From the NCBI RefSeq assembly GCF_016342405.1, contig NZ_JAEINN010000003.1, forward strand, positions 248,001 to 312,000: DNA of 64,000 bases, written 5' to 3'. The notes under the pieces are model-generated. The model saw only the letters and a list, made by a program, of their open reading frames with translations, had not been told where the DNA came from and made no database searches. This DNA comes from Maridesulfovibrio ferrireducens. GTDB lineage: Bacteria; Desulfobacterota; Desulfovibrionia; Desulfovibrionales; Desulfovibrionaceae. Position numbers and translations under genes: made by a program. Numbering within the stretch: position 1 is the first letter of the stretch; every line of letters starts with the position of its first letter. This document shows positions 19,054-48,639 of the stretch, piece by piece.

Positions 19054-19129
19054 TCCTCGGTGGCTCAATCGGCAGAGCGGGTGACTGTTAATCACTAGGT
19101 TGGGGGTTCAAGTCCCTCCCGGGGAGCCA
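19054..19129 (+). tRNA. tRNA-Asn (GTT), copy 1
   Basis: A 76-base cloverleaf. Acceptor TCCTCGG pairs with CCGGGGA, the anticodon loop is CTGTTAA with anticodon GTT, the T arm is GGTTCAAGTCC-like, and CCA is encoded at 19127-19129. Identical to copy 2 at 19351. Confidence 0.96.
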
Positions 19130-19138
19130 GATTAAAAT

Positions 19139-19166
19139 AAGGCTGTTTTCGAAAGAAAACAGCCTT
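19139..19166 (+). terminator. Terminator after tRNA-Asn copy 1
   Basis: AAGGCTGTTTTC / GAAAACAGCCTT with a GAAA tetraloop, then TTCTGTTTT. The same hairpin follows copy 2. Confidence 0.85.
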
Positions 19167-19284
19167 TTCTGTTTTCTATGCAATTCTATTTTTTAAAATT
19201 TGACATTACTCCGTTTATCACTGCTATTATATATAGATGCACTAAAGTTATTTTAAAAAAAATCAATTTAAATGCAGATAATGT

Positions 19285-19313
19285 TTGACAACTTCACGTC
19301 AAATCCGTAGATA
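19285..19313 (+). promoter_or_regulatory. Promoter of second tRNA-Asn gene
   Basis: TTGACA (19285-19290), a 17-base spacer and TAGATA (19308-19313). The second copy therefore has its own promoter and is not read only from copy 1. Confidence 0.65.
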
Positions 19314-19350
19314 TCTCTTCGTCGCAACGGGAAACTGTTGCAGTGAATAT

Positions 19351-19426
19351 TCCTCGGTGGCTCAATCGGCAGAGCGGGTGACTGTTAATCACTAGGTTGG
19401 GGGTTCAAGTCCCTCCCGGGGAGCCA
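19351..19426 (+). tRNA. tRNA-Asn (GTT), copy 2
   Basis: A 76-base gene identical to copy 1, with anticodon GTT and encoded CCA at 19424-19426. Part of a duplicated promoter-tRNA-terminator unit with an offset of about 297 bases. Confidence 0.96.
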
Positions 19427-19435
19427 GATTACAAC

Positions 19436-19463
19436 AAGGCTGTTTTCGAAAGAAAACAGCCTT
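19436..19463 (+). terminator. Terminator after tRNA-Asn copy 2
   Basis: AAGGCTGTTTTC / GAAAACAGCCTT with a GAAA tetraloop, followed by a T run. Same hairpin as after copy 1. Confidence 0.85.
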
Positions 19464-19560: not shown

Positions 19561-19986
19561 ATGAACAACTTCTCGCACCCCACAGCAACGTTTCTACTTA
19601 AAACAGTAAGAGAAACCGACTCTTCCGTTCGCAATGACCTACAGAACGATTCAGAGCTTAATGAGTCGAAGTTTAAACAATTCATTGTCTGTAAAGAATG
19701 CGAACATAAGTTAACCAAGCCAACCTTTGCCATTCAAGTAAACAACAACCACGAGCATTCATTCTTCAATCCGCACGGCTATGTCTTTCAGCTTAGATGT
19801 TTTTCAAATGCAAGCGGCTGTTTGACGGACGGGCTCCCTTCTTCTGAATTCACCTGGTTTTCAGGCTACTCATGGCAAATTACGTTATGCGGAAAATGTT
19901 TTTCCCATCTTGGATGGAAATTCACTTCTGATTCCAATTCTTTTTTCGCTCTCATCAAAGATAAAATTAAAAACTCAACCAAATAA
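19561..19986 (+). CDS. Cereblon-like CULT domain protein
   Basis: A 141-residue protein whose residues about 42-125 match the CULT domain (thalidomide-binding domain of cereblon). Zinc cysteines are paired as CKEC (44, 47) and CGKC (110, 113). The three cage tryptophans are at 99, 105 and 119 in FTWFSGYSW and SHLGWKF. NPHGYV (70-75) is shared with the human domain. Bacterial single-domain CULT proteins are known and bind uracil-like or glutarimide ligands, but their cellular role is unknown. The frame opens with a TTG at 19483 inside the tRNA terminator's T run; the ATG at 19561 is the better start, though it has no clear ribosome site. The gene stands alone between tRNA-Asn and pyk, with its own terminator. 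Confidence 0.85.
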   Translation: MNNFSHPTATFLLKTVRETDSSVRNDLQNDSELNESKFKQFIVCKECEHKLTKPTFAIQVNNNHEHSFFNPHGYVFQLRCFSNASGCLTDGLPSSEFTWFSGYSWQITLCGKCFSHLGWKFTSDSNSFFALIKDKIKNSTK

Positions 19987-19988
19987 AA

Positions 19989-20024
19989 AAGCCATCCTGA
20001 ACTTAATATAGTTCAGGATGGCTT
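19989..20024. terminator. Bidirectional terminator between CULT gene and pyk
   Basis: A 14-base perfect inverted repeat (AAGCCATCCTGAAC and its complement) with an 8-base AT loop between convergent genes. T-rich flanks support function for both strands. Confidence 0.8.
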
Positions 20025-46978: not shown

Positions 46979-47055
<77 letters not shown>

Positions 47056-47067
47056 CATAGATTATTT

Positions 47068-47098
47068 AAATAACCCATTTTTTTTAAATGGGTTATTT
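47068..47098 (+). terminator. Terminator after tRNA-fMet copy 1
   Basis: AAATAACCCATTT / AAATGGGTTATTT with a T5 loop, followed by TTTTTT. Confidence 0.82.
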
Positions 47099-47255
47099 TT
47101 TTGCCTAATAAAAAAAGACCTGACTCTGACAGACAAATCATTATACTTCTTTCTGATAAAAACGACACACCACAAAATTTGAACTCATCATAAATGTGAG
47201 ATAAGCACCACCTTGCCCCAGCCGATCAATTTTTTTTCGAAAAAGGGAGATAAGA

Positions 47256-47936
47256 ATGAACGGCTTTATTAAGGGAGTCCGAGCGAATATACCTCTTACA
47301 CCCAGCGTTATTGCATACAGCTGTGTACTCGGCGTTCTAGCTGCACAAAAATCCATTGCCTGGACCTATATAATGGCACTTAATGTTTTCATGTTTGCTG
47401 GATCTGCCCAATTCGTAATGGTGGACATGTGGGCGGACCCGCTCCCCCTAACGGAAATGGCTATCGCAGCAACAATTGTAAACATGCGCTACATACTCAT
47501 TGCAGCCTCGCTTAAAGATTTATTTGCCGGACAAGGATTGCTGCGCCGGATGAGCATCATGCATTTTGTGGCCGACGAAAACTGGGCTATGACCATGGTT
47601 GCAGCGCGCAAAGGCCAAGCTGACATTTTCCACCTCCTCGGAGGCGGAATGTTTCTGATGCTGGTCTGGAGCTGCGGAACCATGGCGGGCATGTCTCTGG
47701 GAGGAATTATACCCGACCCGCAAGTACTTGCTCTGGATTTCGCATTCACAGCAGTATTCACCGCTCTGGCTGTTTCCCTCTGGCAAGGTAGACAGGATGT
47801 ACTCCCATGGATAGTTGCCATAACAGCCTCAGTTCTCACCGAACACTTCGTGCCCGGCAAATGGTACATACTGGTGGGCGGCATATCAGGAGCAGCATGT
47901 GCTGCTTTCACAGCTCCACAAAGGGAGAAAGCTTGA
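47256..47936 (+). CDS. azlC: AzlC family permease (branched-chain amino acid export)
   Basis: Protein of 226 residues with several membrane segments. Typical AzlC features are RANIPLTPSVIAYSCVLGVLA, FAGSAQFVMVDMW, NMRYILIAASL and FVADENWAMTM. With AzlD it forms an exporter for branched-chain amino acids or analogues. GGGAG lies 7 bases before the ATG. It lies between the first and second initiator tRNA genes. Confidence 0.9.
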   Translation: MNGFIKGVRANIPLTPSVIAYSCVLGVLAAQKSIAWTYIMALNVFMFAGSAQFVMVDMWADPLPLTEMAIAATIVNMRYILIAASLKDLFAGQGLLRRMSIMHFVADENWAMTMVAARKGQADIFHLLGGGMFLMLVWSCGTMAGMSLGGIIPDPQVLALDFAFTAVFTALAVSLWQGRQDVLPWIVAITASVLTEHFVPGKWYILVGGISGAACAAFTAPQREKA

Positions 47937-48241
47937 TCTCTTTAACCTCTGAAAATGCTTTTCTCGCAATAGGACTCGCCTCGCTGGCAACATATTTAAT
48001 GCGCGCCGGAGGATTGCTTCTTGCCGGGTATCTACCCACCGGAGGACGCACAGGAAGAGCCTTAACCGCCCTCCCCGGAACTATACTCATATCTCTTGCT
48101 GCTCCCGGTTTTTTTTCAGAAGGAATTGTAGGGTTTACGGGCGGTTTGATAACCATTGCAGTCGCATTCAAAACCAAAAATGTTTTTATTGCGATGCTGG
48201 CAGGTGTACTTGTTGTCGCCATAGGCAGACATATGTTATAA
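47933..48241 (+). CDS. azlD: AzlD family small permease subunit
   Basis: About 102 residues with three to four membrane segments (FLAIGLASLATYLMRAGGLL, ALPGTILISLAAPGF, VFIAMLAGVLVVAIGRHML), the AzlD pattern. The frame has no upstream ATG of sensible position. A TTG at 47933 overlaps the azlC stop (TTGA) and has GGGAG 5 bases upstream, so it is chosen as the start, with translational coupling to azlC. Confidence 0.82.
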   Translation: MISLTSENAFLAIGLASLATYLMRAGGLLLAGYLPTGGRTGRALTALPGTILISLAAPGFFSEGIVGFTGGLITIAVAFKTKNVFIAMLAGVLVVAIGRHML

Positions 48242-48270
48242 GAAATCATTTAAGACCGTCATTCTTTTAG

Positions 48271-48299
48271 TTGACACCTTATACCTGAGCATGTAGTTC
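48271..48299 (+). promoter_or_regulatory. Promoter of tRNA-fMet copy 2
   Basis: TTGACA (48271-48276), 17-base spacer, TAGTTC (48294-48299) within a TGTAG context, 30 bases after azlD. Confidence 0.55.
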
Positions 48300-48313
48300 C
48301 CTTTTCACAGTGA

Positions 48314-48390
<77 letters not shown>

Positions 48391-48405
48391 CATATATTCT
48401 GAGAT

Positions 48406-48428
48406 GAACCTGATCTTATGACGGGTTC
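48406..48428 (+). terminator. Terminator after tRNA-fMet copy 2
   Basis: Short stem GAACC / GGTTC with a 13-base loop and a run of eight T. Weaker than those after copies 1 and 3. Confidence 0.6.
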
Positions 48429-48521
48429 TTTTTTTTCAGGGTTAAGTCCACTTCTAACATGGACGTTATTATTTAAGGACCTGATAATATTTGAAATAAT
48501 TTGCAAATGTCAAAATTTCAG

Positions 48522-48550
48522 TTGACAGCAAATACCAGAATGTGTAGAAG
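48522..48550 (+). promoter_or_regulatory. Promoter of tRNA-fMet copy 3
   Basis: TTGACA (48522-48527), 17-base spacer, TAGAAG (48545-48550) with TGTAG at the -10 region. Confidence 0.6.
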
Positions 48551-48562
48551 CATTCTCAGTGA

Positions 48563-48639
<77 letters not shown>

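What the first reader, a model, noticed from the sequence alone, without database searches (positions are those of the whole stretch)
19561..19986. Bacterial CULT (cereblon-like) protein with intact tryptophan cage next to duplicated tRNA-Asn
Residues 99, 105 and 119 are the three cage tryptophans and 44/47 with 110/113 are the zinc cysteines. The block FTWFSGYSW...SHLGWKF lines up with the human thalidomide-binding domain. Bacterial CULT proteins are sparsely studied and their natural ligand and role are unknown. The gene is isolated, with no Lon/ubiquitin partner.
Basis: partly seen in the sequence, partly recalled or inferred. Interest (0 to 1): 0.75.

Follow-up and report, generated by a model that had tools for sequence, protein, structure and literature searches.

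The report
Bacterial thalidomide-pocket (CULT) protein
A Desulfovibrio-like bacterium carries a small stand-alone version of the protein pocket that binds thalidomide in humans; it belongs to a family already described in bacteria, but many of its relatives share a short motif in front of the pocket that may hint at what these proteins do.

Summary
ORF 19561-19986 (+) encodes 141 aa; residues 41-139 are a CULT (thalidomide-binding) domain: phmmer E 4e-28 to the bacterial model MsCI4, 4e-16 to 3e-13 to cereblon; the AlphaFold2 model superposes on thalidomide-bound MsCI4 at 1.3-1.4 A. Zinc cysteines 44/47/110/113 and cage tryptophans 99/105/119 are as reported. The family is known since 2014-2015, so this is a new member of a known kind. 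The gene is single-copy, stands alone beside two tRNA-Asn genes, and is kept in 15 of 17 genomes of its genus; no neighbour recurs across genera. Three things may be new: a hydrophobic-[LFC]-[KR] motif 28-38 residues ahead of the first zinc cysteine (57 of 98 canonical proteins, shuffled mean 10.3); tandem paralogs that lost the first cage Trp; and a naturally human-like pocket (residues matching human His353 and Phe402). Best mechanism: a reader of cyclic imides, most likely at damaged protein C-termini, with the tail recruiting a partner, possibly a protease. Ligand and partner are inferred, not shown.

The parts
19561..19986 (+). CULT protein gene (141 aa, P0001), stop codon included
   Evidence: a match in 15 of 17 genomes of the genus, own genome included
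19594..19602 (+). codons of the N-terminal motif Leu12-Leu13-Lys14 in the disordered tail
   Evidence: residues 9-36 have pLDDT under 50
19681..19977 (+). CULT (beta-tent) domain, residues 41-139
19690..19701 (+). first zinc CxxC (Cys44, Cys47)
   Evidence: Cys44 in 117 and Cys47 in 116 of 118 relatives
19768..19779 (+). hairpin tip Asn70-Pro71-His72-Gly73; His72 aligns with MsCI4 Ala52, the counterpart of human His353
19855..19875 (+). stretch holding cage tryptophans Trp99 and Trp105
   Evidence: Trp99 in 108 and Trp105 in 118 of 118 relatives
19888..19899 (+). second zinc CxxC (Cys110, Cys113)
   Evidence: 117 of 118 each
19915..19923 (+). cage Trp119 and Phe121 (aligns with MsCI4 Tyr101)
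19054..19129 (+). tRNA-Asn (gtt), first copy
19351..19426 (+). tRNA-Asn (gtt), second copy
19436..19463 (+). terminator-like hairpin between the second tRNA-Asn and the CULT gene
   Evidence: consensus match only
19989..20024 (.). terminator-like hairpin on both strands, between the convergent CULT and pyruvate kinase genes
   Evidence: consensus match only

Best explanation
A stand-alone bacterial CULT protein: a zinc-stabilised beta-tent domain whose three-tryptophan cage binds one cyclic-imide-like ring (shown in print for its relatives, inferred here). Most likely natural ligand: cyclic imides at protein C-termini (aspartimide or glutarimide, left by chain breakage or made by an isoaspartyl methyltransferase), so that the protein reads a chemical damage mark on proteins. 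Shown here: family membership, intact cage and zinc site, single-copy stand-alone gene, recurring tail motif. Inferred: ligand, partner, consequence.
For: Sequence and fold. Cage and zinc residues almost invariant in 118 bacterial CULT sequences. MsCI4 binds thalidomide and uridine in this cage (PMC4287342 sections, PMC4449219 passages). The tri-Trp pocket of human CRBN recognises C-terminal cyclic imides (PMC12794332 passage), and PCMT1 treatment raises that signal on human proteins (PMC11974815 passages; title of Zhao et al.). A PIMT over the TIGR00080 cut-off is in this genome (G000:C2:254644). Tail motif: 57 of 98 canonical proteins against a shuffled mean of 10.3; 56 of 98 in a 15-residue band against 65 of 792 neighbouring ORFs at residues 5-19. 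The closest ortholog pair shows purifying selection in tail and core alike (dN/dS about 0.31 and 0.32, few sites).
Against: No neighbour recurs across genera, so genome context points to no pathway. PIMT does not track CULT: over the cut-off in 129 of 149 family genomes, namely 47 of 49 with CULT and 82 of 100 without (my cross-count, confounded by completeness), and G039, 99% complete, has CULT but no PIMT over the cut-off. CULT is in 49 of 149 family, 39 of 395 phylum and 21 of 398 second-phylum genomes: protein damage is universal, the protein is not. Uridine also fits the cage. 41 of 98 canonical tails lack the strict motif. The MsCI4 crystal construct has 24 residues before its first zinc cysteine, too few for a motif at -28 to -38. 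The tail has no predicted fold in the model of P0001 or of L004.
Confidence: 0.5

Rival explanations
1. Pyrimidine sensor: the cage binds uracil or uridine and reports pyrimidine status or uracil release from nucleic acid.
For: MsCI4 binds uracil and uridine, while cytosine and thymidine gave no NMR shifts (PMC4287342 section, PMC4449219 passages); a deoxyuridine co-crystal, 4v31, is among the fold matches.
Against: [quoted passage not shown] I saw no pyrimidine gene in the printed list of recurring neighbours (names read by eye).
Confidence: 0.2
2. Binder of free small cyclic imides, lactams or hydantoins (metabolites or natural products), as a sensor or buffer without a protein partner.
For: MsCI4 takes many glutarimide-type compounds and a simple lactam (5ohb); patchy distribution suits a niche chemical.
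Against: Does not explain the recurring tail motif; I saw no recurring transport or catabolic gene at a fixed place.
Confidence: 0.17
3. The tail motif is an intramolecular lid that folds over the ligand-binding face, like the N-terminal extension of human cereblon's LON domain, and recruits nothing. (Not exclusive of the ligand readings above.)
For: In cereblon a short N-terminal extension folds along the thalidomide site and touches only the flexible regions (PMC4449219 passage). None of 10 cage-degenerate paralogs has the motif, though shuffling expects only 0.4 there.
Against: Neither AlphaFold2 model gives the tail confident structure; both rest on 13 sequences and hold no ligand. I did not inspect tail contacts in the coordinates.
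Confidence: 0.2
4. A decaying or non-functional gene.
For: Absent from two of 17 genus genomes, one a clean gap between tRNA-Asn and pyk; no Shine-Dalgarno scored.
Against: Present in 15 of 17 genomes of the genus, dN/dS about 0.3, cage and zinc residues kept.
Confidence: 0.03

Closest known systems
Bacterial CULT family, MsCI4 (MGR_0879) of Magnetospirillum gryphiswaldense (PDB 4v2y and others)
   Same: single CULT domain, four zinc cysteines, three-Trp cage; 43 of 100 aligned residues identical to chain 4v32, the Y101F variant; rmsd 1.3 A to 5amh and 1.4 A to 4v2y_A
   Different: P0001 has 43 residues before Cys44, with the LLK motif, against 24 in the MsCI4 chain; His72 for MsCI4 Ala52 and Phe121 for MsCI4 Tyr101, both as in human cereblon
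Eukaryotic cereblon (CRBN), thalidomide-binding domain
   Same: same domain, cage and zinc site; VIA Z about 16-17; E 4e-16 to 3e-13
   Different: no LON domain on the chain; no DDB1/cullin context; Ile107 where human has Val388 (human residue recalled, not taken from a call)
Yippee / Mis18 (PF03226)
   Same: nearest relatives of CULT according to PMC4287342 (abstract); weak Pfam match, in 16 of 22 members of alignment A2 at E 0.01 or better
   Different: below the Pfam gathering score for P0001 (21.2 of 26.6 bits)
Bacterial protease adaptors such as SspB and ClpS (works-like comparison only)
   Same: idea only: small reader of a terminal signal plus a flexible tail with a short docking motif; the SspB tail peptide binds the ClpX zinc-binding domain whatever its position in a chain (PMC12373786 passages). 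The ClpS comparison is recalled
   Different: no sequence relation tested or claimed; binding of the CULT tail to any protease is untested

Membership tests
CULT domain, bacterial group (PMC4287342) | detectable homology over the whole domain | tested here: met
   phmmer E 4e-28, residues 38-137
CULT domain, bacterial group (PMC4287342) | three cage tryptophans | tested here: met
   Trp99, Trp105, Trp119
CULT domain, bacterial group (PMC4287342) | two CxxC zinc motifs | tested here: met
   Cys44/47 and Cys110/113; zinc itself not tested
CULT domain, bacterial group (PMC4287342) | beta-tent fold | tested here: met
   pLDDT 90 or more at 79 of 141 residues; 5amh rmsd 1.3 A, TM 0.91 on target
CULT domain, bacterial group (PMC4287342) | protein consists of the CULT domain alone | tested here: met
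   no second folded domain predicted; a disordered tail of about 40 residues precedes it
CULT domain, bacterial group (PMC4287342) | binds thalidomide or uridine | not testable with these tools
   needs protein
Cereblon (CRBN) proper | LON domain N-terminal to CULT on one chain | tested here: not met
   141 aa with a disordered tail only; the genome's two LON matches lie in separate frames of 844 and 817 aa on other contigs
Yippee-Mis18 (PF03226) | score over Pfam gathering cut-off | tested here: not met
   21.2 against 26.6 bits
AAA+ protease adaptor (functional class) | binds a protease or unfoldase and delivers a substrate | not testable with these tools
   only a tail motif and the presence of ClpX- and Lon-type domains in the genome

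The most novel reading that the evidence does not exclude
Bacterial CULT proteins are protease adaptors for a C-terminal damage mark: the cage captures proteins ending in a cyclic imide and the N-terminal hydrophobic-[LFC]-[KR] tail motif docks on an ATP-dependent protease (Lon, whose N-domain is fused to CULT in cereblon, or ClpX). Cereblon would then be a eukaryotic remodelling of a bacterial protein-quality-control pair.
Probability: 0.17. Interest if true: 0.85.

Novelty: new member of a known kind. Interest (0 to 1): 0.38.

Why it matters
The natural role of the bacterial thalidomide-pocket proteins was left open in the papers that described them. This member is ordinary as a family member, but the survey around it gives concrete handles: a recurring tail motif that could identify a partner; a genus with natural presence and absence at one syntenic site; tandem paralogs that lost part of the cage as built-in negative controls; and a natural pocket with the two human-type residues (His353 and Phe402 equivalents) in which MsCI4 differs.

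Tried and rejected
Conserved gene partner: not found. Clustering ORFs within six genes of CULT in 110 loci gave no partner shared across genera at a fixed place. Local runs are a uroporphyrin methyltransferase/HemD-like gene at -1 in 7 loci, a BatD-like gene at -1 in 5 and a rhodanese-like gene at +1 in 4 (names read by eye, not searched). The widest cluster (17 groups) sits at scattered positions and looks like a histidine-kinase mixture. My simple ORF caller also admits spurious ORFs.

Fusion proteins: none established. For three of the long open frames around hits (831, 413 and 384 aa; L052, L053, L064) there are candidate internal starts 35-75 residues before the first cysteine, so the frames need not be fusions. 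The 416-aa frame and others were not checked for starts, and no such frame was scanned for domains.

Co-occurrence with PIMT: uninformative. Mobile-element cargo: no relative in viral contigs (46 pattern hits, none confirmed), phage records or plasmids; no PADLOC family; PHROGs and NCBIfam at chance level only. Promoter: four promoter-like sites against 2.8 expected, no claim. Folded tail: not predicted in two models (P0001, L004). Literature: searches for bacterial CULT or cereblon, MsCI4, CULT with Desulfovibrio (0 papers), and cereblon with ClpXP, adaptor and cyclic imide showed in their listings no report of the tail motif or of a bacterial function. I opened few of the listed papers and the library lacks most subscription journals, so this is weak.

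Full report
What is there. The window ORF 19561-19986 (+) encodes 141 residues. phmmer against the PDB gives MsCI4 of Magnetospirillum gryphiswaldense at E 4e-28 to 2e-27 and cereblon chains at 4e-16 to 3e-13. An AlphaFold2 model from 13 sequences has pLDDT of 90 or more at 79 of 141 residues, block means of 88-98 from residue 41 to 140, and under 50 at residues 1-6 and 9-36. Foldseek ranks MsCI4 chains first (rank 1 is a mutant, 6r0q_A, 1.5 A; thalidomide-bound 5amh is rank 2, 1.3 A, TM 0.91 on target). VIA gives Z 19.1 to 6r0q_B, 18.9 to 5amh and about 16-17 to cereblon. Pfam and NCBIfam give no match above a curated cut-off (Yippee-Mis18 at 21.2 of 26.6 bits), so profile-based annotation with these two libraries would miss it.

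Gene setting. Upstream on the opposite strand lie genes with Omp85/POTRA, ABC transporter, FtsX/MacB and class II tRNA synthetase domains (the last LysS by my reading); downstream a convergent pyruvate kinase, then OmpH and Na/Pi cotransporter genes. Two tRNA-Asn genes precede the CULT gene. Terminator-like hairpins follow the second tRNA-Asn (19436-19463) and the CULT gene (19989-20024); the region has five such sites against 0.9 expected. The gene thus looks monocistronic. It is single-copy in the genome.

Distribution (own or centre genome counted). CULT matches in 15 of 17 genomes of the genus (two of the alignments run past the gene's stop codon), 49 of 149 sampled genomes of the family, 39 of 395 of the phylum (profile search) and 21 of 398 of the phylum of G539, the genome of L014 (Pseudomonadota, inferred from the title of L014, a gammaproteobacterium). 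In the genus all 15 loci share the lysS - pyk position and have one to four tRNA-Asn genes nearby. Of the two negative genomes, G004 has both tRNA-Asn genes, lysS and pyk with no CULT gene between and no tblastn remnant better than E 0.2. In G001 the same side of pyk holds other frames, one resembling a helix-turn-helix repressor by eye, and no tRNA-Asn in the 1.5 kb read. The genus includes 'Desulfovibrio sp. UBA2564' (L002, the same contig region as L082 of G007).

No shared neighbours. Of the 113 genomes with a CULT match I fetched regions for 99 (15 of 15 genus, 30 of 42 other family, 34 of 35 other phylum, 20 of 21 second phylum), plus 10 of the 13 loci (L002, L012 and L014 dropped as duplicates of fetched regions). 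One genome, G336, gave two loci. In these 110 loci no neighbouring gene recurs across genera at a fixed place beyond small local groups. Function cannot be read from context.

Conservation of the pocket. Of 118 CULT sequences in the 110 loci, Trp105 is kept in 118, Trp119 in 117 (one fragment lacks it), Trp99 in 108, Cys44 in 117, Cys47 in 116. The ten without Trp99 lie in eight genomes of one genus of the family (g25): tandem or lone paralogs that also changed the Asn-Pro tip, carry His (8) or Tyr (2) at the Phe121 position, and kept Trp105, Trp119 and all four zinc cysteines.

A human-like pocket. PMC8900816 (passages and section 3.5; [quoted passage not shown] its authors had humanised variants but none that could be soaked as widely as wild type, and a humanised MsCI4 entry of 2025 (9gjq) is among the matches. 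By alignment MsCI4 Ala52 is His72 here and MsCI4 Tyr101 is Phe121. The two human-type residues occur together in 29 of 107 sequences with Trp99 and Trp119, 13 of them in the window's genus; the MsCI4 pair Ala/Tyr in 10 of 107. Natural members such as this one may be closer stand-ins for human cereblon at these positions; crystallisability is unknown.

The tail motif. PMC4287342 (abstract and two sections; [quoted passage not shown] Aligning many shows a recurring hydrophobic-[LFC]-[KR] triplet, often with prolines around it (P-x-P-x-phi-phi-[LF]-[RK]-x-x-P), ahead of a linker with 22% Asp/Glu. Counting: of 118 sequences, 107 have Trp99 and a readable first cysteine; 98 of these have at least 42 in-frame residues upstream (nine dropped); 88 remain after removing tails 50% or more alike. 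The triplet occurs between -42 and -11 in 57 of 98 (1000 shuffles of each tail: mean 10.3, maximum 20) and in 49 of 88 (mean 9.3, sd 2.8, maximum 23); 48 of those 49 start at -28 to -38. In a 15-residue band it occurs in 9 of 19 second-phylum sequences (shuffled mean 1.1, maximum 4) and 47 of the other 79 (3.4, maximum 10); a relaxed form in 16 of 19 and 53 of 79. As a further control, 65 of 792 neighbouring ORFs over 150 aa have the triplet in residues 5-19, against 56 of 98 CULT tails in their band (some ORFs are spurious). None of 10 cage-degenerate paralogs has it, but shuffling expects only 0.4 there and they are one lineage, so this is suggestive only. The pattern came from the window's phylum, for which the counts describe rather than test. 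It stood in the notebook before the second-phylum tails were first printed, apart from L195, seen earlier as L014; those 19 are thus close to a fresh test. Against: 41 of 98 lack the strict form and all starts are predicted. Between the two closest orthologs dN/dS is about 0.31 for the tail (12 non-synonymous, 9 synonymous differences) and 0.32 for the core (8 and 6).

How it most likely works. Cage and zinc site are those of proteins that bind glutarimide-like rings. MsCI4 binds thalidomide and uridine, and about a third of the domain orders only on ligand binding (PMC4449219 passages). In humans the pocket reads C-terminal cyclic imides (PMC12794332 passage), and PCMT1 treatment raises that signal on some proteins (PMC11974815 passages). 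This genome has a PIMT over the family cut-off, one ClpX-type zinc-binding domain and two LON substrate-binding domains in Lon-length frames; the ClpX domain, one LON domain and the PIMT lie within about 12.5 kb on contig C2. None of this is diagnostic: these genes are widespread, and G039 (99% complete) has CULT without a PIMT over the cut-off. I put half my confidence on a cyclic-imide reader of protein ends; docking on a protease through the tail is the boldest reading and gets 0.17. A resemblance of the motif to the SspB tail is recalled and was not tested.

Verdict. The family is known, so this is a new member of a known kind. The added value is the tail motif, the degenerate paralogs and the natural presence/absence pair, which make the open question of the bacterial role testable.

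Noticed in passing
L056-L063 (for example L056:5903-7573): One genus of the family (g25) carries up to three CULT genes in tandem; the extra copies lost the first cage Trp and the Asn-Pro hairpin tip but kept the zinc cysteines, and most share their own N-terminal sequence. In G093 and G109 only the degenerate form was found.
   Followed up: partly
L074:5873-6283: A genus member (G008) has Tyr in place of the second zinc cysteine (CRQY), with all three cage Trp kept.
   Followed up: no
L204 and L205: The two genus genomes without CULT: one clean gap between tRNA-Asn and pyk, one with other frames at the same side of pyk.
   Followed up: partly
window 19054-19463: tRNA-Asn genes, one to four copies, lie near the CULT gene in the 15 genus loci; both window copies are followed by the same hairpin.
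   Followed up: partly
window 46979-48639: Three tRNA-Met genes within 1.7 kb.
   Followed up: no
L150-L155: By eye, a divergent CULT group in the phylum with intact cage, no tail motif at the usual place and a longer C-terminal loop.
   Followed up: no
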